64,000 nucleotides of DNA from Owenia fusiformis (Eukaryota > Annelida > Polychaeta > Sabellida > Oweniidae). A program made the position numbers and the translations under genes. The notes under the pieces are model-generated. The model searched no databases, had not been told where the DNA came from, and saw nothing but the letters and a program-made list of their open reading frames with translations. This document shows, piece by piece, positions 18,951 to 61,390 of this stretch (position 1 is the stretch's first letter; every line of letters starts with the position of its first letter). The DNA lies in NCBI GenBank assembly GCA_903813345.2, contig CAIIXF020000001.1, forward strand, positions 49,493,885-49,557,884, written 5' to 3'.

Positions 18951-21900
18951 GTTCCACAAGAAGAAAAAGGCTGGAACTGATGTGTGGTTCGCTGAAACAT
19001 GTGAGCATCTACAAAACAAAAAGATCGCACCCATGGTTCCAGATATATTCGCTTCATACTCCGGCCCAGATGAAGGCCTAACTATTGTCCATAAAAATAC
19101 TGAAAATGGTATGTACAATTGAGTGTGAATAAAGCCGGTCACACCAGGATTATGCATTTAGAGAATGAATTCATGGGAGGAGAAAAAACATAATTGGTCA
19201 TTTCTGAGCCAAAGTCATTTTAGTGTGTCATCGTGTATGTATTTCACATTGTGATAGGCATAGCATATTTACAAGAAGGCTGAGAAGAAATGAGATGCCA
19301 TGGTCTATCATGAAGCTACATTTTTCTTGCAAATTCACTTGATGATCACTGATGTTTTTAGTGAAGAAAATTTCACATCTTGAAGTTATTTTCACAAAAA
19401 CCTCCCAGTTTTCACTATTCTTCTTCCCATTCAAAAGTTTTAAGACTCCTCAGAAGTGATTTTAGCTAGTTGATATAGCTAACATTTACATGTCAAGAAC
19501 TAAACATTTTTATTATATTGTACATATATAAATATGTACACAATGTATCTTAATCTATTTGTGGAATATCGCAACAAGACACTAAAACAGAAACAACTAA
19601 GAATATTTTCAAAAATTTGATTATGGTGCGTGTTATTTTTTAGGTCCATCCAACAATAGCACAGCTAAACAGAAAACAATCCTTGGTGCCAAAAACTGGT
19701 CAGTTAAAAGTCGCAAAGCCTACGCCATATGTATGTCACTTTATGACCAGAACCCTGTCAATGGCAAGATTTCAGGTAATGTAGAACCATGTCAATGGCA
19801 TGATTTCAGGTAATGTAGAACCATGTCAATGGAAAGATTTCAGGTAATGTAGAACCATGTCAATGGAAAGATTTCAGGTAATGTAGAACCATGTCAATGG
19901 AAAGATTTCAGGTAATGTAGAACCCTGTCAATGGCATGATTTCAGGTAATGTAGAACCCTGTCAGTGGCAAGATTTCAGGTAATGTAGAACCCTGTTAAT
20001 GGCAAGATTTCAGGTAATGTAGAACCCTGTTAATGGCAAGATTTCAGGTAATGTAGAACCCTGTTAATGGAAAGATTTCAGGTAATGTAGAACCATGTCA
20101 ATGGAAAGATTTCAGGTAATGTAGAACCCTGTTAATGGAAAGATTTCAGGTATACATGGAATTACAAAACACTGTCAATGGCAAGATTTCAATATAATTA
20201 TAGAACAACATTGTAAAACCCTATCGATTGCAAGACTTTACATGTTTTAAGATCCTCTGAACCTGCCAATGTTTCTGAGTTTTTCTGAGCATATTTCCTT
20301 GAAGGTTTTGTAGAGAGGCTATTTCTAGAATTACATCCACAGTACAGATTGTATAAAAACTAAAATCCATGGTAAAACTGTTGTAATTACTTCCAGGGGA
20401 CCCAATCGCAGATGCTTTTGGTATTTGTGCCAGGAAAAACAATGCTCTCCTAGTTGTCGCAGATGGTGTAAACTGGGGAGAGAAATCCAAGATGGCTGCA
20501 CGCAGCGCAGTTTATGGGTGTATGAAATACATGCATGAGAAAGTCTTCTGTTCAGGAAGAAATCTCAAAACAACTCAAGTAAGAAACTTTGTATGGATAA
20601 GGTTGTTTTCCTCATTTTATTGAGTGTGAAGAGATATAGAAAACCACAAGCTTGAGATTGTTTAAGTGGTTTAACAGATTAAGTTCTAAATATGCCACTT
20701 AGCTATGTTTTAATGCTATTTTTGAGATTATATGAGCACATTTGTTATTGTTTTTTATGTTTGTTAATGAATCAATTCATCAAAATATGCTTACTAAAGA
20801 TCATACTGCCATTTTATCTATAGAGAATTTGATTTTGATGACCTTGTTGTTCAATCTGAAAGTTAAGGGTGATATAACTTTTTGATTGGTAAACTATAGG
20901 CATAAACTAATTGTTGCTTCATTTCAAAGCAATATTTATTTTATACTTACATTTAATAATGGCTTTATGAAGATAGCTTTAAGGAATAGTACAAAACTTG
21001 ATGTCTGCTGATGTTTTGTTCTGATATTTCAGAGTGACCCAAAAAATCCCTTTAAATGGAATCCAAATGTATATTTTTTTTTGTGATTGTGAAGATTATA
21101 CTTACTTATTTGCGCATAACCATTTGTCCTCCTGTATAAACTAAATCTGATGAATGAAATTTTATATGTATTATTATGTGTATTTCAGGAGGTGTTAGCA
21201 TGTTTACGACGTTCGTTTGACTGTGCACACGAGACAATTCTACAACAGGAAGCTGGACTCACAACGCTGTGCGCTGCCATGGTAGTCCCACTTAAAGATA
21301 AAAAACAATACGCGGTTTGTGTGGTTAATGTAGGTGATAGTTTTGCATTCGTACAGAGTAACGCCAATGGATTCCGTGAAATTACCATAGGCTCTCATGA
21401 TATTGACAGTGTACGTGATATACGTGATGCCGGGGGTGCACTGGGTCCAGTAGATGGCACTAACCCAGAACTACACAATCTGACATGCTCCATGACTATT
21501 GTAGACCCTGGAGATATTGTCTTCCTCACCACCGATGGAATCTCAGACAATTTTGACCCTGTGGTCACAAAGATGGCCGTCCCAACTAAAGATGACGATA
21601 GTGACGAGGAGGAATCTGACAGTCCATCCTCTCCGTCATCAGATAGCGGAATACAAGCATCAGCCAATAACAATCCAGTTGACTTTAAGCCTGCCATGAC
21701 TCCCCAGGAACGTCATCAGTTCTGTGTCAAAGGCATGGAACGGGTTCTACATGAATTTGAATTATTTGCAGAGACTCCATGTTGTGCCCAAGAACTCTGT
21801 GGTGCAATAGTACAACATGTTACCCAACTCACAGACCAGAAACGCAAAGTATTAGAAAATCCAGAACTCTATGGAAAAAAATTGAAATCAAGACAACGGA

Positions 21901-27551: not shown

Positions 27552-30500
27552 TGGAATATGATAATATATAATAATATCAAGGAAAATCCACACCCTGAAA
27601 CCTTGTTAGATCACTTCTAATGTATATCCTAATACAACTTGTCATCAAAGCTATCACCTCTGGAGCCAATCTAAATTCCTGAGAATTGTCATAAAAATCC
27701 AATGTTTGCTTTTGTTGTAGCTCTAGGGAGTGTGTTAACAGGCAACTAGGGGACTTTGTACCTATTATCTCTGCACATTTGTACTAGCTGCCAGATTCCT
27801 CCTATAGAGTTTTATATTATCAGATCTACGGTATAACCTATATCAATGAACGTATTTTGCTATGTATGGATAACAATGCATATATACTGTTTTTATGAGG
27901 TCACTTGGTGAGCTATTGCAATTACCACTTATCTGTCTGACTGTCCATCCATTTTTCAAGTGGAACGTTTTAAACCTAGCTCTGATTCTACCATTGGAAA
28001 GTCAGATATTCTTCTTTTTTTAAAATCATTATTTTGAATTGTTAACAAGGGGTGTACAGTACTTTACATTTTAACTTGTACAATTGTGGCTTGCTTGATT
28101 TTCCCTTCACATTCAGATTTTATGCTTTTGGCTCCATTGTTTGCAATAGGAGAATGTTGGATTCATAATCCCTTCAAAGTATTCTTTAAATGACATGAAC
28201 TATAAATGCCAATGTACAGGGTGAGCCAAAAAAGGTAACCCAAACAAACATTAATAGCTCAGTCATCCAGCATAGGTTTAAGATCATATTTGGCACAATT
28301 AAACCTTGTTCAATGTTCTTTCATTCCAATGAGTTTCACTGGTCTATTTCAAATGACCACAATCTTATGGCTATTTTACAAATCATCCTCAAAATGCCAG
28401 TCTCCTCTCTGGAGGCTAATTTGAACACAGTGGGTGAAGCTGTTCCAAATAAAAAGGCCAAAATCCCAAACGGAAGGAGCAAATAAAGTCACAATACGTT
28501 GGTAAATAACAAGGTGTTGTTTGCTATAGAAGAGTATCACTGTATCATATCATGTATATCACCAAATCATATCGCACATACTGCCTAATGAATTTACAGA
28601 TTAGAAGAGTAGATTACAAGTATGGTTTTCTGAAGGCTTTGTTAATATCCTAGTTAATATCTATGTGTGAGTACAATGCATGATCAAATGACATATTAAC
28701 ACGGCTCATTGCTACATGACCTGCTACTAAGCCATCTGCGAAATTGATAAAATGCATTATTTGTGCATCCTTAATTCTGCTTGATGTTAAAGGCATAATG
28801 ATATCATCTATAGGGGTTGACGAAATTGTAAGCAACATGAACAATTGATCTATGAATCTATTCCTTATGATGTCAAATACAATATCTCCAAAAAGATCTG
28901 CAATATGGAAGAAATGGGGGAAAAGTGTTTAAATTCTCCCAAATAATAAAAATGGTAACCATAAAAATAAAAAAAATAATGCTTTATTGTAGTTTTCCTG
29001 AAATATGTTTAGAAAATAGACATGACAAAGAATGATATGAGCAAAAAATATTCTAAAATCATACAATTTTTGGGTTTTCTTGCTCGCTAGATCTGATTCT
29101 CTCTTTAACTATAGGAATTTATTGTCAAGTGAATTTTCTATCAACATGCCATACATGTAGTTAACATAATTTGAAAAAAGATATCAGTGATTTGCAGTGT
29201 TACACCTGCAAAGTAAACAAACCTAGAAGTACCATGTCAAAAGTGTTTATTAGGGGTAGTATACATATTGATAATAACTCCTCTGGTATAGAGATAAGAT
29301 AAAACATACTTATTTTACAGTTTTACACACACCGCTGTGTGCAGACAAGATAAGCATTATACAATTATATCACTAATAAATTCTGCTAATTGCACATAAA
29401 GATAACAGAACATTCATAAGAGATAATCTTTCACAAAATGAAATATTACATAACATAAAAGTAACAAGACATTATTTATAGTAGAGGGGCAATTGTAATA
29501 AAGTATTAGTACAAGACCCAAAAATGTAAAGATTTGGTGGGTCTTAGAAGAAACAAAGCCCCCTCCACACTTAATTTTGTTGATCTTCACTATAGCGCAA
29601 GCGCAATGTTTTAAAACATGTGAAGGACACACAATTTGTCCAGAGATTCCTATACACCATTGGAAAGTTTGGACTATGAGCCTTTTGAAACTGATCAGAT
29701 TATCAGTTTCATCACCAAAGTAAATTATAATTCGCCATAATTCAATATCCGAAGGCATGAATATTTGGGTGATTTCTGAAAAACATTAAATTAAAGCATT
29801 ATGTTATGAAAAGTAATTTTAGTATTACAGTACAAAGGGGCTCAAAATCAAAACCAAACAATTCAATTTCAATTCAATTTCAATTTATTAAATATATATG
29901 CATACAACAATACAAAATTGATGAAGGGAGCGAGACACCACTGAAAGGTGTATGGTGCCCCCTGTAACAATAAAAATTCATATGAGTTAGCAATTGAAGA
30001 TGACAAATAGGTATATGAATGGAAAAAATCCTTGGAACTATTATATTAAGTAAAAAAGCTTTTGTTCCTGCAATTTCAGCTATGATACAAAGCTGTTTTG
30101 GCCTCCTCCCAATGCCCCCGTTTCCTGATATAGTTGGTGTTCATGCTAAAGATGAAAAACAAAGATAAGAATTCTTGAGATCAAAAGTGCCAAGTTAAAA
30201 CAAGTTAAAAGTGTACAAGTGTACATTGAAATGGTCATTAAAATATATGTCAACTCCTTATATTTTCCATTGTATTGCTGTTTTCATTACATTGATTAAA
30301 GGCTAAATCAGAGGTATATACTCGTTTAAGAGACAAAATTCCAAGCAACATGTACAATTAATATTCTTTACCATCTCAAATATGCTAATATTATCTCCAA
30401 AGAGATTCATATTTGATCAAACAGTAAAGTTACGTCTATCCATCCCATGCCCAGCTAGGTAGACCATGCTCAAAATATGAAGATTCAAGGAAGACTCTGG
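27552..30500. other. Intergenic stretch with transposon fragments
   Basis: No exon is recognised. A mariner-like terminal sequence (TACAGGGTGAGCCAAAAAAG, starting about 28,215) is present without a detectable partner end; a similar solo end is at about 56,639. A dispersed repeat at 28,860-29,110 matches 23,050-23,290. Open frames such as the minus-strand one at 29,414-29,758 show no known motif. Confidence 0.5.
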
Positions 30501-31013
30501 AACAGCCATATCCTCCCCCAGTGGAACTACCATATCCACCCCCAGTGGAACAGCCATATCCTCCCCAGTGGAACTGCCATATTCTCCCCAGTGGAACAGC
30601 CATATCCTCCCCAGTGGAACTACCATATCCTCCCCCAGTGGAACAGCCATATCCTCCCCAGTGGAACTACCATATCCTCCCCCAGTGGAACAGCCATATC
30701 CTTCCCAGTGGAACTACCATATCCTCCCCCAGTGGAACAGCCATATCCTCCCCAGTGGAACTGCCATATTCTCCCCAGTGGAACAGCCATATCCTCCCCA
30801 GTGGAACTACCATATCCTCCCCCAGTGGAACAGCCATATCCTCCCCAGTGGAACTACCATATCCTCCCCCAGTGGAACAGCCATATCCTTCCCAGTGGAA
30901 CTACCATATCCTCCCCCAGTGGAACAGCCATATCCTCCCCAGTGGAACTGCCATATCCTCCCCCAGTGGAACTGCCATATCCTCCCCCAGTGGAACAGCC
31001 ATATCCTCCCCCA
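30500..31013. repeat. 23/24-bp minisatellite, about 22 copies
   Basis: The unit is 'ccatatcctcccc(c)agtggaac' plus a two-base ending (ag, ta or tg). Units vary between 23 and 24 bp by one C, and units ending in 'ag' and 'ta' mostly alternate, hinting at a two-unit higher-order repeat. Three plus-strand frames stay open and would read Pro/Tyr-rich, but the mixed unit length breaks any common frame, and no start context or splice site supports a gene. Confidence 0.9.
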
Positions 31014-31120
31014 GGCTCTTGATTGAAACAAAACTCTTACACAGGTGAAGAAAAACAATATTGTCATGTTCTGTAATTGTCATAAAGGAATATGTACCAT
31101 GGTTTATCCCACCCTAAGTG

Positions 31121-52835: not shown

Positions 52836-55800
52836 CTAAAACAAAGAAAAAGGAATGGTCCAATGGATTTTTGTTATTGGGGAGGCAAAGACGTAGCCTA
52901 AGAATAGTCTAGGAAAACTTAAAATAAAACTATTCGGGCAAAAAAGATTTAAATGGGAATAAGTAATACATGTATCAATTAAAAAAATTGATTTAAAATG
53001 TCTGAAATATCTGGTGAGGCCTGTCTTTTCCCTGGGTATGCCCATGGGAGGTCATATACTTTTATAACAGGATCTCGACCTCTTACACCTTGCCCTTATA
53101 AGGGGCTATCCTCCGAGGGGAAAGGCAGATGTACGCAACAGGGTGAGACAATTATCATACATCACACCTTTGGCTATTTTTGCACGCTAGATTTTACAGT
53201 ATAAACTCATTGTTTAACTCGGTTATGTGCGACCTGACTACTCCATTAGATACTCCATCATCAACTATATCAGACAACCACAGTTGAAATTCTGTTAATA
53301 TATTTCTTGGCAGATGCAACCTTTTTCAAACAGCAAAAGGGAAACCATGACTGGTAAAATATATACAAAGATTTTCAATCTACAACATACGAAATCTCCT
53401 GTTGGAGGGGAATAGATTGGAACTGAAAAATCTGACAGATGATATTTTTAATATGAGGGAATCATAGTAAATCAAAAATCCAATGAATGAAAAAGCTTGT
53501 GCTAATCTTCATTATAATATGTATGCATACTGTACATAAGGAATAGGGTTTTAAAGCAAAGGGGTTTTTCTCCAAAGTTACCAGTTACCAGTCCACCAAG
53601 AAACATGTACATAAGTGATCTAGCCTATATATAAGTGATCTGGCCTATACATAAGTGATCTAGCCTATACATAAGTGATTTAGCCTATAAACAGCAGTTT
53701 AACTAGAAAATAATGGACTTCAATAACTCTGAGCTTCTGTAAAAATAAGGGCTTTAATTATTTACACATGTAGGGTTTCAAGGTTCAACAACCTCAAATT
53801 ACAGGGTTTGAACTACTTCCAAAAAAGCACAATTCGAAAATGAGTACACTTCTTTAGCCCTGCAATTCGAGGTTAATTGCCCTTGCATTGGAGATCTCCA
53901 GTCCAAAGTTTGGAAAAGACAGATCTATACAGATGTGCTCTCTTCAGATCTGTCAAATGATGTATTGCTTTTAGAAGATACATCACTCATTTGACTCGAA
54001 CTACTTGATGAAGATGTGCTAGAGAATGGAGTAAGAATTGCTCGAATTTTTCGATTAACTGTCCTGCTGAATGTCTTCTTCCAGACATTTTTTGGCAGCT
54101 GAACAGATATCTGCACAGGTTGAATTTCAAACACATCCAAAACACGCTTCCAGAACCAATCTTCTGTCGTTGGGTTACCTTTCATTTTGTAATAATCTAG
54201 GTTGCAAAAATAGCGTCCCAGTGGAGTATCATCTTTGTCAGTCATACGTATTGGTACAATCACCTTGTTCTTGACATGGCCTAAAATAACATAGTCATTA
54301 TGTGTGTACAAGTATGTAATTTGCATTTTTGATTTCCAAGTATGCTCTAGTATGAAGCAGGTGGTACATTTGAGGAGAAAAATTTGGGGGCTTTTGAAAG
54401 GAATTGTGTTGATCATGTATTTCTGTTTAACATTTTTTCTCCCATACTGAAAGTGTTACCTGAACATGTGAAATGTTTTTCTAGCAATACATACTGGTTA
54501 TCAATAAACATGTTTTAAATTGTGTTCCCACTATTCTAAATTGCAAAATCAATCAATGCATTTATACTTGTCAGAACGTAAATTAAAACATCTGCAGATC
54601 CCATATGCTCTATTGACCTAAAAGTTAAATCACATACATATTTTTATGTTTCGGTCCGCCATTTTTACAACCTAGATTTCACAATGTGGATCCACCTTAT
54701 AGTACGTCCACTCCATATTTAGACTACCATAACTTGTTATAATAACATATCATTTTCTGCGTATATTAGAAAATTGTGTTTGTGTTGCCCTTTACAGATT
54801 ATAAGTGGTGCCCTTTACAGATTATAAGTGGTGCACTTTTATTGCTGCTGACTAGGAGGGCAACATTTTAAGCCATTTTATTTTCACTAAAGAAGCTACA
54901 TATAAAATACTATAAATGTTGCAAATCACAGGCTGTTTAAAAATTGGGGATAATTTAAAAACTATATTCTCTTACTTATCAAGCTAATGGTGTCTGGGAA
55001 TAAAAGGTATAAGGAAAGGTAACAGGAACATAAGCATAGCCATATAGCAGCCCCACTTTATATGTCATCCATGCTAAATCATTACATTTAAGGAGTTCAT
55101 ATATAGAGGTTTGTACAAGGTATTTGAAATGTTTGCGACTGGTATAAATTCTTTGTGGGTGTTTATATCACAGAATGTGGTAAAGCATGCTTAAACTATA
55201 ACAACATATAAAGCAAGTCCTGCTTTGCCTAGAAATATAGTATGTTCACATTTTAAGTCACTCCAATCAATCTGTCTGTCACCTCCATTATTTTTGAAAT
55301 CCTCACACACTACTTTTTTCAATTAAATACATTTTTATAGCATCTCAAGTATTGCTTAAATGTAAAAGATAAGAAATATAATGTAAAATGATGAATAAAA
55401 CTGCTAAAAAGCGATCGTTTCAAAGAGAAATGTTTCCCATATATAAAATATAAAATAAAATTAACAAAACTGATCAAACATAGAACTTATTGAGCATTTA
55501 AGATGCAGAAATGTCCAAATTCATTGAAACTGAAAAAAGGATGCCCACTTTTCAGTTTATGCCAGATAACCTTATAAATGAAAGGATTATCCTGATATTA
55601 AGAACTGAGGGTGATTTAGAAAATAGGCATGATATAGATCGAAAAGAGTAATTAAAATTGTTGGGTTTTTAGAAAATAGGCATGATATAGAACGAAAAGA
55701 GTAATTAAAACTGTTGGGGTTTTAGAAAATAGGCATGATATAGAACGAAAAGAGTAATAAAACTGTTGGGGTTTTAGAAAATAGGCATGATATAGAATGA

Positions 55801-58800
55801 AAAGGGTACTTAAAACTGTTGGGGTTTTAGAAAATAGGCATTATCTAGAACGAAAAGAGTAATCAAAAACAGTTGGGTTTTTAGAAAATAGGCATGATAT
55901 AGAAAGAAAAGAGTAATTTGTGATAATTTTCTCGAAACTAACTGTAACTGATCTCTATCCCTTTTATTTGATGAAATCATATTATTGTAACATCAGGACT
56001 TTTTCAACGAACAGAAAAATTAGGAAAGAGAGCTAAAAACAAGGACATACATATATTCATCTAAAAAGCCTGGTAATCATCAAGAAAATAACTTTGTGTT
56101 TTTTTTATATTGTCGTCTTGAGGACTAAAAAGTTGAAACACTATGTAAAAACCAAGAAGGAATGTTATGACTTTTACTAATATATCATGTATCTATTCTG
56201 TCTTTGGTGGTTTGTCCAACAATCTCATATGACTGAAGATCAACATCAATGTCATCATTTACAGTCTCATTTACAGCTTGTGTATTTCCTGATGTAACTC
56301 TGTTGCTCTCCTTTGGTTTCTTGCCATGAAAGAAATTCCAAAGTTTCTTAGATATAGTTTTTGTCATTGAGAGTTGACTGATGTCGAGATGTGACATATG
56401 TGAATGTAGATTACTACTAGACCTAGGAGGAAGACCTAGAGAGGCCGAGGGCTTCTCATCTTCAAATGCTTTCAGAACTTTGGGCCAGAACCATTTCCTT
56501 GTACGCTCATTAAAATAGTCTAAGGGTGAAAAATGGCGGACCATGGTAGGCTCACTTGACCAATCATGGATTCTGATTGGCAAAAGCTTTTTGTTGCATA
56601 TTGGATCTGCAAAATGTAACATGTTTATTATGTGCATGTACAGGGTGAGCCAAAAAAGGTACTAGTCACGCAAACAAATGGTTCATCCAACACAATCAGC
56701 CATTAACATTCAATCAAACATGCAAGCAGAACACTTTTTAGCAACAATATCTCTTTTAACTTGAAACAGAACCTGGAAGTAAAGAAATTGGCATTATCAT
56801 TTGAAATCACCGTTCTTTTCTCATGTTCTTGTTTGTGATCAATTTAAAACTTAAACAGTGAGATGTTTAAAGTAGCTGTAAAACAAAATGATAACTTGAC
56901 TAAGAACTTACCATTAGAGAGGCTCTGAGCAAACTTAGCTTTGATATTACCATAAAAGAGGATCTGGGCAAACTTGACTAAGAACTTACCATTAGACAGG
57001 GCCTGAGCAAATTTGACCAAGAACTTACCATAAGAGGACCTAAGTAAACTTGACCTAGAACTTACCATAAGATAGGACCTAAGTAAACTTGACCTAGAAC
57101 TTACTGTTAGAGAGGGCCTGAGCAAACTTGACCTAGAACTTACCATAATATAGGACCTAAGTAAACTTGACCTAGAACTTACTGTTAGAGAGGGCCTGAG
57201 AACACTTGACTTTGAACTTAACATTAGAGAGGGCCTGAGCAAACTTGACCTAGAACTTACCATTAGAGGACCTAAGTAAACTTGACCTAGAACTTACTGT
57301 AAGAGAGGGCCTGAGAACACTTGACCTAGAACTTACCATTAGACAGGGCCTGAGCAAACTTGACCTAGAACTTACCATTAGAGGACCTAAGTAAACTTGA
57401 CCTAGAACTTACTGTAAGAGAGGGCCTGAGAACACTTGACCTTGAACTTACCATTAGAGAGGGCCTGAGCAAACATGACCTAGAACTTACCATTAGAGGA
57501 CCTAAGTAAACTTGACCTAGAACTTACCATAAGATAGGATCTAAGTAAACTTGACCTAGAACTTACTGTTAGAGAGGGCCTGAGAACACTTGACCTTGAA
57601 CTTAACATTAGAGAGGGCCTGAGCAAACTTGACCTAGAACTTACCATTAGAGGACCTAAGTAAACTTGATCTAGAACTTACTGCAAGAGAGGGCCTGAGA
57701 ACACTTGACCTTGAACTTACCATTAGAATGGGCCTGAGCAAACTTGACATAGAACTTACCATTAGAGGACCTAAGTAAACTTGACCTAGAACTTACCATA
57801 AGATAGGACCTAAGTAAACTTGACCTAGAACTTACTGTTAGAGAGGGCCTGAGAAAACTTGACCTTGAACTTACCATAAGAGAGGGCCTGAGCAAACTTG
57901 ACATAGAACTAACCATAAGATAGGGCCTGAGCAAATTTGACCTAGAATGTACCATTAGAGAGGGTCTTAGTAAACTTGACAGGTAACTTATTATTAGACA
58001 GGGCCTATGCAAACTTCACCAAGGACTTACCATTAGACAGGGCCTGGGCAAATTTGACCTAGAACTTACCATTAGACAGGGCCTGGGCCAACTTGACCAA
58101 GAACTTTTCATTAGAGGACCTAAGCAAACTTGACCAAGAACTTACCATTAGACAGGGCTTGAGCAAACTTGACCAAGAACTTACCATAAGACAAGGCTTG
58201 AGCAAACTTGACCAAGAACTTACCATTAGAGAGGGTCTTAGCAAACTTGACATGGAACTTATCATTAAAGGACCTCAACAAACTTGACCAGAACTTACCA
58301 GTAGACATGGAACTTATTATTAGACAGGGCCTGAGCAAATTTGACCTCGAACTTACCATTAGAGGTCCTAAGCAAACCTGACCAAGAAATTACCATTAGA
58401 CAGGGCATGACCAAACTTGACATAGAACTTACCATTAGAGAGGGCCTGGGTGAGCAAATTTAACCAAGAACTTACCATTAGAGGACCTAAGTAAACTTGA
58501 CTTAGAACTTACCATTAAAGAGGACCTGAGCTTTGACCTGTCACTTACCATTAGAGAGGGTGTGAACAAATTTGACCTAGAACTTACCATTAAACAGGGC
58601 TGAGCAAACTTGACCAAGAACTTATCATTACAGGTCCTGGGCAAATTTGACCAAGAACTTACCATTAGACAGGGCCGGAGCAAACTTGACCAAGAACTTA
58701 CCATTAGACAGAGCCTGAGCAAATTTGACCAAGACCTTACCATTAGACAGGGTTGGAGCAAATTTGACCAAGAACTTATCATTAGAGGTCCAGGGCAAAC

Positions 58801-60058
58801 TCGACCAAGAACTTACCATTAGACAGGGCCTGAGCAAATTTGACCAAGAACTTACCATTAGACAGGGCCTGAGCAAACTTGACCTGGAACTGGCACTCTG
58901 GAGACAGCTTCCACTTCTCTGAGAGAACAATCACCACACGTGAGCACCTGTAACAAGTAACTGCATCTAATTACATGTACATGGAAAGGTGTTCTATGTT
59001 TTTTATCTGATAATGGTAATAGGGATTCATCATGTTCTTTTCACAGTAAGTGTGTCACTTTATCTACTATAATTTGTCCTATATCATTCGAAAGTTACTT
59101 TTATGGCAGTTTGCTGTTTAAAATGTTTTATCAAGATGTACCAAGGCTCAATAAATAGAATAAATAGAAAATATTATTTTTCAAGGTTTTTTATATCGTT
59201 TTGAATTTATCAAAAAAACTTTATGTTGAAATAAGTCATTACTTTTCCTAAGGAAGTTAGTAAGCAGATAAAATAAAGAAATATCCTGATGATAATCGCA
59301 AACCTTTTCTCCATAAGTTCTGCAGTGACGACTGTTCTGAAGTTACCACTAGTTCTGAGATCTCTATCCGGAATGAAAAGCTTTTTGCCATTTTCTTTTT
59401 CCAGTTTTTGGATCAACTGAAGCACAAAATCCAAGTCATCCTCGTGGTAGCTCACATAGGCATCAAAGTGCTGTTTTCTTTCTGGTGCTGAAAACAAAGT
59501 ATTTAGTCACTAAAGGAACATTCTAGGAAAAGGAAAATGATGTAATTATTGGTACAAAAGCAGGGTTTCTACAACATTTTCATCAAGAGAATCTCTGAGA
59601 TTTCCAAGACACTGAAGGCAAAAATATTGGCTTCCAAATTTTCTGCTTTGCCCGGCCTCCCGAAAGCCCAAATAAATAGATTTTCCTTACATTTTCAGAT
59701 CTGTAGGAACCATTCAAAGACTCCTTGATTTATTGTTTCATGATGGATAATCATTTAAATCATAGCAAAATGCATGACACATGTCATACCAGAACATAAA
59801 ATTGAGACCAATAATATTCATCATGTATATAAGTCATGAGACCTATTGAAACAGGTTAGGGTCTTCATCTTGGAGTGGTACTAAATGATAATGCTTTAAC
59901 AATTAACATGAGATTGAAAAAGATCCGTTACAAGAGTGGGTGTAATGTAGTCTTGCAAAGTGAAAATTTTGAATCCCAAAGAAACTTACTATCCCCTACA
60001 GCAAACAGCATATCATCAACAGGCACTACTAGCTCAGGCTCACACTCAGAGCTATCTA
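52567..60058 (-). CDS. MYD88-like: MyD88-like TIR-domain gene, 3' part, with three candidate alternative terminal exons
   Basis: Constant exons on the minus strand are 59990-60058, 59304-59487 and 58856-58947, followed by alternative last exons 56185-56606, 53925-54280 and 52567-52835. The constant part reads DSSECEPELVVPVDDMLF and then PERKQHFDAYVSYHEDDLDF (TIR box 1), KLFIPDRDLRTSGNFR (box 2/BB loop), ELMEKRCSRVVIVLSEKW and ECQFQVKFAQALSN. This order, with the 'DSS...PER-x-FDA' lead-in, matches the intermediate region and TIR of MyD88, the adaptor linking Toll/IL-1-type receptors to IRAK kinases. No death domain was recognised; it should lie further 5', probably beyond the window. The BB loop lacks the usual Pro-Gly. 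All joins agree in phase (constant exon 3 ends one base into a codon; all three terminal exons begin with the two completing bases). Confidence 0.85.
53613..53690. repeat. About 20-bp tandem repeat, 4 copies
   Basis: Four copies of 'ataagtgat(c/t)t(a/g)gcctata' in a row between terminal exons c3 and c2. Confidence 0.85.
53925..54280 (-). CDS. MYD88-like: Terminal exon c2: TIR second half, variant 2, with Ser-rich tail
   Basis: Follows a TTATTTTTAG acceptor, same phase as c1 and c3. It reads HVKNKVIVPIRMTDKDD, an LDYYK strand, and box 3 as WFWKRVLDVFEI, then a basic segment (VWKKTFSRTVNRKIR) and a Ser-rich end with a run of eight Ser (SSTSSSSSSSQMSD). It has 118 residues before TAG. An ATTAAA variant hexamer on this strand (53,752 region) is the best poly(A) candidate. 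Compared with c1 it keeps the fold-defining positions but differs elsewhere, as expected of an old exon duplication. Confidence 0.8.
55610..55915. repeat. About 53-bp tandem array, 6 copies
   Basis: AGAAAATAGGCAT recurs at 55618, 55671, 55724, 55776, 55829 and 55883, with 'gaaaagagtaat' and 'gttggg(g/t)tttt' in most units. It is non-coding and lies between terminal exons c2 and c1, just past the c1 poly(A)-type signal. Confidence 0.9.
55963..55968 (-). promoter_or_regulatory. Poly(A) signal AATAAA for terminal exon c1
   Basis: Canonical hexamer on the minus strand 217 bp past the c1 stop, which would allow transcripts to end there rather than continue to c2 and c3. Confidence 0.5.
56185..56606 (-). 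CDS. MYD88-like: Terminal exon c1: TIR second half, variant 1, with long tail
   Basis: Follows a TTTTGCAG acceptor. Joined to the constant exon it gives ...ALSN-D-PICNKKLLPIRIHDW, an LDYFNE strand and box 3 as KWFWPKVLKAFED, then about 90 residues of hydrophilic tail with a basic, aromatic patch (KKLWNFFHGKKPKE) and an acidic end (NDDIDVDLQSYE). Stop TGA at 56185. This is the terminal exon nearest the constant exons and lies directly after the 39-bp array in transcription order. Confidence 0.85.
56639..56720. mobile_element. Solo mariner-like terminal sequence
   Basis: TACAGGGTGAGCCAAAAAAG matches the edge seen at about 28,215, but no opposite end or transposase frame is recognised, so this is a fragment. 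Confidence 0.45.
56894..58883 (-). repeat. 39-bp minisatellite made from TIR exon 3' end plus its 5' splice site, about 51 copies
   Basis: On the gene strand each unit is GTCAAGTTTGCTCAGGCCCT, then GTCTAATG|GTAAGTTCTTG: the last 28 bases of the constant TIR exon (coding VKFAQALSN) followed by the first 11 intron bases. The genuine exon end (58856) is the first unit in transcription order; roughly 50 diverged copies follow to 56,894. Most are 39 bp, a subclass with 'gaggacctaag' (plus strand) is 37 bp, and a few are irregular. Most keep G|GTAAGT, ACAGTAAGT or a close variant. In the distal half, units recur in a higher-order pattern of three to four types. It sits in the intron between the constant exon and terminal exon c1. 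Confidence 0.95.
58856..58947 (-). CDS. MYD88-like: Constant TIR exon b, source of the 39-bp array
   Basis: From the GTTACAG acceptor to donor AATG|GTAAGTTC. It encodes CSRVVIVLSEKW, KLSPECQF and QVKFAQALSN, the middle of the TIR domain (the vertebrate MyD88 counterpart is the segment with VVVVSDDYL and KFALSL). The donor at 58856/58855 is the only one whose upstream sequence is the complete exon; the next copy, ending at 58817, would add 13 residues in frame. Confidence 0.9.
59304..59487 (-). CDS. MYD88-like: Constant TIR exon a (boxes 1 and 2)
   Basis: Acceptor TTTTCAG, donor AAAAG|GTTTGC. It encodes PERKQHFDAYVSYHEDDL (box 1), a helix (FVLQLIQKLEKENGKK) and KLFIPDRDLRTSGNFRTVVT (box 2 with the BB loop), ending ELMEKR. 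The usual BB-loop Pro is replaced: the loop reads RDLRTSGN. Confidence 0.9.
59990..60058 (-). CDS. MYD88-like: Linker exon upstream of the TIR domain
   Basis: Bounded by TTATTTCAG and GGATA|GTAAGT. It gives 22 codons, DSSECEPELVVPVDDMLFAV then GD, joining to T-PERKQHF. The DSS at its start and the acidic/hydrophobic character match the MyD88 intermediate region between death domain and TIR. It needs one base from an upstream exon. Confidence 0.75.
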
Positions 60059-60422: not shown

Positions 60423-61390
60423 CAGGGTGACAAAAAAAAACTGGAACCCATAAATCATAAAATTTCTCAGAAAGTATTATACCTACATTCTTCATTTCTT
60501 CAGGGTAGAAACTAGACTGAATGCATGACAAAATGACATAATAATGAGTACTGTAGCTTAGATATTAATCATGCCATGGACGACAGAAGAAAATACTTAT
60601 ATTGTGAGAAAGTATATCGAGACAAAAAGACAAACTGCCTATATGAGAGATCACAGGGCAAGAAGAGCCCCTTGCAAGTCACAGATCTTTAGGCTTGTAC
60701 AGAAGTTTGATTCAGAAGGAACTGTAAAACCAACAAAGAAGAAAAGTGATGGTAAACCAACCTATTCGGGGAGAGAGAGGTCTGTCAGAACTCAAGACAA
60801 CTCAACAGTCAACTCAGAACGTTACATTCCTAACGTTCAAAAGTTTTGGAGAGAGCTGGGTAGACGACGTGACTTGAGAAGGGACCAGCAATGGTTCCAA
60901 CAAGATGGTGCCACACCCCACACCTCAAATGAGTCCATTCAATGGCTTCAGGCTCACTTTGGTGATCAATTAATCAGTCACCATACCCGCCACATCTGCC
61001 CCCCCCCTCCACTCCCCTGATTTGAACCCCCCAAATTTTTATCTGTGGAGGTATCTCAAGGATAATGTGTATACAGATAGTCCACTGACCATTGATGACC
61101 TCAAACTCAACATTGGAAGACTAATTAGAGAGATAGACAGATATGAATGCAGTCGGGTCATGGACAATTTTGCAAGAAGAATCCAGCTCTGCATCCAACG
61201 TTGTGGTGCACATTTGGAGCACATTATCTAATCGTGCCTCATTTGGAGACTAATTGAGCTATAATGCTAAAACTTTATCATCTTGTCATACATTCAGTTG
61301 ACTATACATGTACCCAATAACTAAGCTCAATATGCATTATTGACGAAGTTATCAAGACTTAAGTGGGTTCCAGTTTTTTTTGTCACCCTG
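60423..61390 (+). mobile_element. Mariner/Tc1-type element, 968 bp, internally deleted
   Basis: Terminal inverted repeats of about 28 bp (CAGGGTGACAAAAAAAA then CTGGAACCCA) are flanked on both sides by TA, the target duplication of the Tc1/mariner superfamily. It contains a broken transposase gene (60571-61231). The ends differ by one A in the A-run. Confidence 0.9.
60571..61231 (+). pseudogene. Degenerate mariner-type transposase
   Basis: The first frame (60571-61020) has an N-terminal helix-turn-helix-like part (KSQIFRLVQKFDSEGTVKP), then jumps to the later catalytic part around WFQQDGATPHTS, which holds one catalytic Asp. The segment with the first catalytic Asp seems deleted. A poly-C run near 61,000 shifts the frame; the remainder (DLNPPNFYLWRYLKDNVYT, matching the usual 'DLNP.DFYLWG.LKD' block) continues in another frame to the stop at 61229-61231. 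It is not functional as it stands. Confidence 0.8.

What the first reader, a model, noticed from the sequence alone, without database searches (positions are those of the whole stretch)
56894..58883. About 50 tandem copies of an exon end with its 5' splice site inside a MyD88-like TIR gene
The 39-bp repeat unit is exactly the last 28 coding bases of the constant TIR exon plus the first 11 bases of the following intron, including G|GTAAGT. Most of the roughly 50 copies keep a usable-looking donor. The array lies between the constant exon and the alternative terminal exons, so it is a field of decoy or regulatory 5' splice sites that could bind U1 snRNP, delay splicing or suppress premature polyadenylation. 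The derivation from the exon is read directly; any function is inference.
Basis: partly seen in the sequence, partly recalled or inferred. Interest (0 to 1): 0.88.

Follow-up and report, generated by a model that had tools for sequence, protein, structure and literature searches.

The report
Exon-edge splice-site repeat array ("mirage")
A MyD88-like immune adaptor gene carries about 51 tandem copies of the end of one of its exons together with its splice donor, and this turns out to be one case of a known kind of repeat, "mirages", that is common across many unrelated genes of this genome, so it is most likely tolerated repeat growth and not a dedicated splicing control.

Summary
Window 56893-58891 (minus strand) is a 39-bp minisatellite with about 51 copies. 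Its unit is the end of the second TIR exon plus the start of the intron, including the donor ATG|GTAAGT. It occurs at no other locus found in the genome. The host gene is MyD88-like (TIR, two alternative TIR terminal exons, probable death domain upstream). 31 of 51 copies keep a donor with the same U1 pairing energy as the real one. The functional reading is not supported. Donor bases are only marginally better kept than the rest of the unit. Only donors 1 and 2 keep the reading frame; all later ones give a truncated TIR. The decisive result is recurrence: on contig C1, 12 of 13 regular GGTAAGT arrays lie at exon ends of unrelated genes (tetraspanin, BLOC1S5, GTF2H2, WDR35, UPRT, NIF phosphatase and others), one with more than 90 copies. 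Arrays also sit at exon starts. The same structure is published in lancelets as "mirages", where splicing was reported normal. This genome looks annelid-like rather than lancelet, so scale and taxon look new. Verdict: a large new member of a known kind, most likely neutral; a U1-sink effect on terminal-exon choice stays possible but untested.

The parts
59990..60058 (-). exon upstream of the TIR domain (exon 3 of this model)
   Evidence: acceptor TTTATTTCAG|, donor A|GTAAGT, open in frame
59304..59487 (-). first TIR exon
   Evidence: Pfam TIR_2 and TIR on the spliced protein; PDB MyD88; boundaries
58856..58947 (-). second (constant) TIR exon, ...KFAQALSN|G, source of the repeat unit
   Evidence: MyD88 alignment; coordinates
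56893..58891 (-). 39-bp exon-edge minisatellite, about 51 copies of exon end + donor; its first copy is the exon itself
   Evidence: confined to this locus
58816..58855 (-). first intronic unit between donor 1 (58855) and donor 2 (58816); the only two donors that keep the full-length frame
   Evidence: frame table
56893..56911 (-). terminal partial copy (GTAAGTTCTTAGTCAAGTT), probable start of the pre-array intron
   Evidence: AGTTCnnnGTCAAGTT is shared with the exon
56185..56606 (-). alternative terminal exon A (coding part to the stop), end of the TIR domain and tail
   Evidence: open and in frame with the constant exon; Pfam TIR
55963..55968 (-). AATAAA downstream of exon A
53925..54280 (-). 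alternative terminal exon B (coding part to the stop)
   Evidence: open and in frame; Pfam TIR; PDB MyD88

Best explanation
The array is a 'mirage': a minisatellite born at an exon-intron boundary. A short imperfect direct repeat (AGTTCnnnGTCAAGTT), once in the exon end and once just after the donor, probably seeded a 39-bp duplication, and unequal exchange or slippage then expanded it to about 51 copies (inferred). Because the real exon end is the 5'-most copy, the growing array fell into the intron and left the normal donor and protein intact (shown by sequence). Splicing most likely still uses the first donor, now and then the second (+13 aa in frame); use of later donors would give truncated TIR transcripts (shown by translation; actual use not tested). 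The duplicated donors are passengers of repeat growth. The same process has acted on many unrelated genes in this genome.
For: The unit derives from a conserved TIR exon and is absent elsewhere. Units 27-49 show higher-order periodicity (identity peaks at lag 3 and lag 7) and units 2-26 do not, which is typical minisatellite turnover. About 40% of copies have lost the strong donor and donor constraint is not significant by parsimony. All donors after the second give a premature stop. On C1, 12 of 13 regular GGTAAGT arrays abut exon ends, with exon homology by Pfam for tetraspanin 2.5e-37, Muted/BLOC1S5 5.9e-15, NIF 4.9e-6, Ssl1 3e-26 and UPRTase 1.1e-7, and by PDB for WDR35 1.2e-11 and GTF2H2 4.2e-23. 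Exon-start arrays occur too: SSF 5.3e-32, Nic96 5.5e-16, zinc finger 1.7e-13. Most unit lengths are not multiples of three and the second donor usually gives a stop. Lancelet mirages: PMC3087553, PMC3902484.
Against: Among 9-base windows of the unit, the donor window ranks second of 39 for intact copies (0.59 against a mean of 0.34), so weak constraint is not excluded. No RNA data were available. The survey classified exon edges by open frames, acceptors and homology, not by annotation; three of the twelve C1 cases (DCAF17, TSP1, neurolysin) have only weak homology and two (L074, L077) have none.
Confidence: 0.8

Rival explanations
1. The array is a regulatory field of U1-binding decoy donors that delays splicing or shields the proximal poly(A) site of terminal exon A (telescripting), shifting the gene towards isoform B.
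For: At least 31 copies pair with U1 as well as the true donor. The array lies between the constant exon and two alternative terminal exons, 0.9-2.9 kb upstream of the exon A poly(A) signal at 55968. The donor window is among the best-kept parts of the unit.
Against: Constraint on donors is marginal. Comparable arrays occur in unrelated genes. Lancelet mirages were reported not to disturb splicing.
Confidence: 0.1
2. The array creates protein diversity: donors 1 and 2 alternate and insert 13 residues (GKFLVKFAQALSN) into the TIR domain.
For: Donor 2 at 58816 is identical to donor 1 and keeps the frame.
Against: Only one extra copy is usable; unit 3 is 37 bp long and the donor after it lacks GT. 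Most other arrays in the genome are out of frame.
Confidence: 0.05
3. The array mainly causes unproductive splicing that lowers MyD88-like output, or yields a truncated dominant-negative TIR protein.
For: Every donor from the third on gives the same stop after the TIR is cut short.
Against: No expression data. The same arrangement is tolerated in conserved core genes such as GTF2H2 and WDR35.
Confidence: 0.05

Closest known systems
Mirages: minisatellite-like tandem duplications of exon/intron boundaries in amphioxus globin, Adh3, TnC and PGBD5 genes (PMC3087553, PMC3902484)
   Same: Unit spans an exon-intron boundary; either edge can be affected; copies keep splice signals; homogenisation within the array; the first or last true boundary stays usable.
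   Different: Here the copy number is about 51 (and more than 90 in another gene of the same genome) against 3-6 in globin BflGb6; the genome looks annelid-like, not cephalochordate; cases on one contig already number at least 12.
Intron gain by tandem duplication of AGGT-containing segments (Rogers model; potato RdRp case PMC4974935)
   Same: Tandem duplication that copies a splice signal.
   Different: Here an existing intron is extended with donor copies; no new intron is shown. PMC4974935 was seen only as a search result, not read.
U1 telescripting and decoy 5' splice sites
   Same: Many potential U1 sites within an intron ahead of a poly(A) site.
   Different: No binding, protection or retention shown; origin by repeat expansion explains the sites.

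Membership tests
Mirage (exon/intron-boundary minisatellite) | repeat unit spans an exon-intron boundary of the same gene | tested here: met
   28 exon + 11 intron bases per unit
Mirage (exon/intron-boundary minisatellite) | head-to-tail minisatellite array at the boundary | tested here: met
   51.4 copies, period 39
Mirage (exon/intron-boundary minisatellite) | copies derive from the local exon, not from a dispersed satellite | tested here: met
   no copy outside the locus; exon is a conserved TIR exon
Mirage (exon/intron-boundary minisatellite) | concerted evolution inside the array with edges less homogenised | tested here: met
   lag-3 and lag-7 identity peaks (0.90, 0.91) in units 27-49, none in units 2-26
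Mirage (exon/intron-boundary minisatellite) | normal splicing undisturbed | not testable with these tools
   no RNA data
Mirage (exon/intron-boundary minisatellite) | length or somatic instability | not testable with these tools
   one assembly only
Mirage (exon/intron-boundary minisatellite) | cephalochordate host (where described so far; not strictly defining) | tested here: inconclusive
   no GFP family found (a negative without a positive control); annelid erythrocruorin linker family found at three places
Regulatory decoy 5' splice-site array | donor bases under stronger constraint than the rest of the unit | tested here: inconclusive
   parsimony p 0.07 (-3..+6) and 0.26 (GTAAGT); rank 2 and 3 of 39 windows
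Regulatory decoy 5' splice-site array | specific to a gene with regulated splicing | tested here: not met
   arrays of the same kind in GTF2H2, WDR35, BLOC1S5, UPRT and others
Regulatory decoy 5' splice-site array | U1 occupancy or effect on isoforms | not testable with these tools
   needs RNA experiments
MyD88 | TIR domain closest to MyD88 | tested here: met
   PDB best match MyD88, 7.9e-23
MyD88 | N-terminal death domain | tested here: inconclusive
   exon 71513-71956 beyond the window: Pfam Death 5.7e-4, below cut-off; linkage to the TIR exons not proven

The most novel reading that the evidence does not exclude
The array is a cis-acting U1 snRNP sink that suppresses the proximal poly(A) site and so sets the choice between the two TIR terminal exons of a MyD88-like adaptor, with array length tuning the ratio between individuals.
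Probability: 0.07. Interest if true: 0.85.

Novelty: new member of a known kind. Interest (0 to 1): 0.5.

Why it matters
The array belongs to a class so far reported, in the papers found here, in a handful of lancelet genes. Here it appears at large scale in what looks like another phylum, in core genes such as TFIIH p44 and IFT121. Each case offers the spliceosome many near-identical donors of which usually only the first gives the right protein. That is a natural test of how the cell picks one of several equal 5' splice sites, and of how tandem boundary duplications feed intron gain.

Tried and rejected
Exon as copy of a general satellite: rejected, no copies elsewhere and the exon is conserved. 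Array as coding repeat: rejected, 37-bp units and in-frame stops break the frame. Enrichment of donor-word arrays over other words: not settled. GGTAAGT gives 1146 places, the reversed word 1215 although it is about five times more frequent in a 165-kb sample; a third word, GATGAGT, is dominated by a dispersed repeat. I therefore claim recurrence at exon edges, not a proven formation bias. GGTGAGT arrays were listed but not followed to exons. Identifying the organism: GFP family search empty, annelid linker family found, literature search on chromosome number unhelpful. Literature on splice-site decoys gave nothing specific. No structure prediction was run because the domain was clear by sequence.

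Full report
What is there. The minus strand of 56893-58891 is a head-to-tail array with period 39 and 51.4 copies. Aligned unit by unit it has 51 full copies after the one inside the exon, most of 39 or 37 bp, and a partial last copy. The unit is the last 28 bases of an exon that ends ...KFAQALSN|G and the first 11 of the following intron, centred on ATG|GTAAGT. Nothing like it was found elsewhere in the 498-Mb assembly. 40 of 52 donor positions keep GTAAG and 32 of 52, the true donor included, keep full U1 pairing near -9 kcal/mol.

The gene. On the minus strand the exons are 60058-59990, 59487-59304, 58947-58856, then terminal exon A from 56606 and terminal exon B from 54280, both in frame. 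Either spliced protein has a TIR domain, and the exon B form matches MyD88 best among solved structures, 7.9e-23. A death-domain-like exon (Pfam 5.7e-4, below the curated cut-off) lies about 11.5 kb upstream, beyond the window.

Origin. The exon contains AGTTCCAGGTCAAGTT, and the last, partial copy, which I take as the original intron start, contains AGTTCTTAGTCAAGTT, so an imperfect 16-base direct repeat at 39-bp spacing may have seeded the first duplication (sequence; inference). Units 27-49 show identity peaks at lags 3 and 7 (0.90 and 0.91) and units 2-26 do not, as expected when unequal exchange renews the middle of an array.

Consequence. Donor 1 gives the normal protein and donor 2 adds 13 residues in frame. 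Every donor from the third on leads to the same stop in a truncated TIR domain. Productive splicing therefore needs one of the first two among 32 strong donors.

Selection. By parsimony on a tree of units, donor positions -3..+6 change 1.9 times each against 3.0 elsewhere (random-set p 0.07); GTAAGT alone gives p 0.26. By intact copies, the donor window ranks 2 of 39 for nine bases and 3 of 39 for six. This is marginal. It neither proves nor excludes weak constraint.

It is not alone. A search for three spaced GGTAAGT words found 1146 places. On C1, up to 58.8 Mb, these form 14 loci: 13 are regular arrays and one is irregular (L096). I read the flanks of all. 12 of the 13, this one included, sit at an exon end, with the unit made of exon end plus donor (in L075 the array starts right at the exon end but the exact donor is less clear). 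Homology supports the exons: tetraspanin, Muted/BLOC1S5, NIF phosphatase, Ssl1/GTF2H2, UPRTase, weakly DCAF17 and TSP1; WDR35/IFT121; GTF2H2; weakly neurolysin. Two have an acceptor and an open frame only (L074, L077). The exception is L080. Copy numbers reach 32 or more in BLOC1S5 and above 90 in the neurolysin-like gene, and most unit lengths are not multiples of three. A second exon-edge-like array lies in this same window, plus strand 19749-20152. Arrays with the acceptor word TTTTCAGG number 261 against 61 for the reversed word; of 11 read, five start exons with homology: sodium symporter, Nup93/Nic96, zinc finger, SBF-like and, weakly, AlaRS. Both edges are thus affected.

Comparison with what is known. 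Tandem repeats spanning exon-intron boundaries were named mirages in amphioxus Adh3, are described in globin genes at either boundary with unequal crossing-over and normal RT-PCR products, and were proposed as a route to intron gain (PMC3087553). PGBD5 and TnC cases are noted in PMC3902484, again without aberrant mRNA. Our array meets every mirage feature that could be tested. What differs is copy number, frequency and host: the GFP family was not found (weak evidence) and the annelid erythrocruorin linker family was, so the genome is probably an annelid. The species was not identified.

Verdict. The proposed regulatory role is possible but has no positive evidence beyond position and donor number, and recurrence in unrelated genes makes a passenger origin the better account. 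The broader finding, many boundary arrays in a probable annelid genome, is the more interesting result.

Noticed in passing
window 19749-20152 (+): Second exon-edge-like array in the window: 34-bp unit, 11.9 copies, following an open frame that ends ...[19 protein letters not shown]; no Pfam or PDB match for the exon.
   Followed up: partly
L083 and L095 (C1:58792900-58798900): Neurolysin-like exon end copied as a 34-bp unit more than 90 times over more than 3 kb, longer than the array reported.
   Followed up: partly
L054 (C1:442747 region): Tetraspanin exon end copied 18 times as a 54-bp unit; the whole array stays open in frame, so it could be read as protein if the last donor were used.
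   Followed up: partly
L084 (C3:2523400-2524500): Exon-start array whose unit encodes ESGLGKSTLINSL, a septin-like P-loop.
   Followed up: no
window 55615-55918: 53-bp tandem repeat, 5.7 copies, downstream of the poly(A) signal of terminal exon A.
   Followed up: no
window 30498-31014: 47-bp array (two 23-24 bp half units) with repeated TCCTCCCCAG, acceptor-like on the plus strand; no exon tested.
   Followed up: no
window 60562-61017 (+): Open frames that look like a mariner-type transposase fragment (TPHTSNESIQWLQAHFGDQLISHHT), not searched.
   Followed up: no
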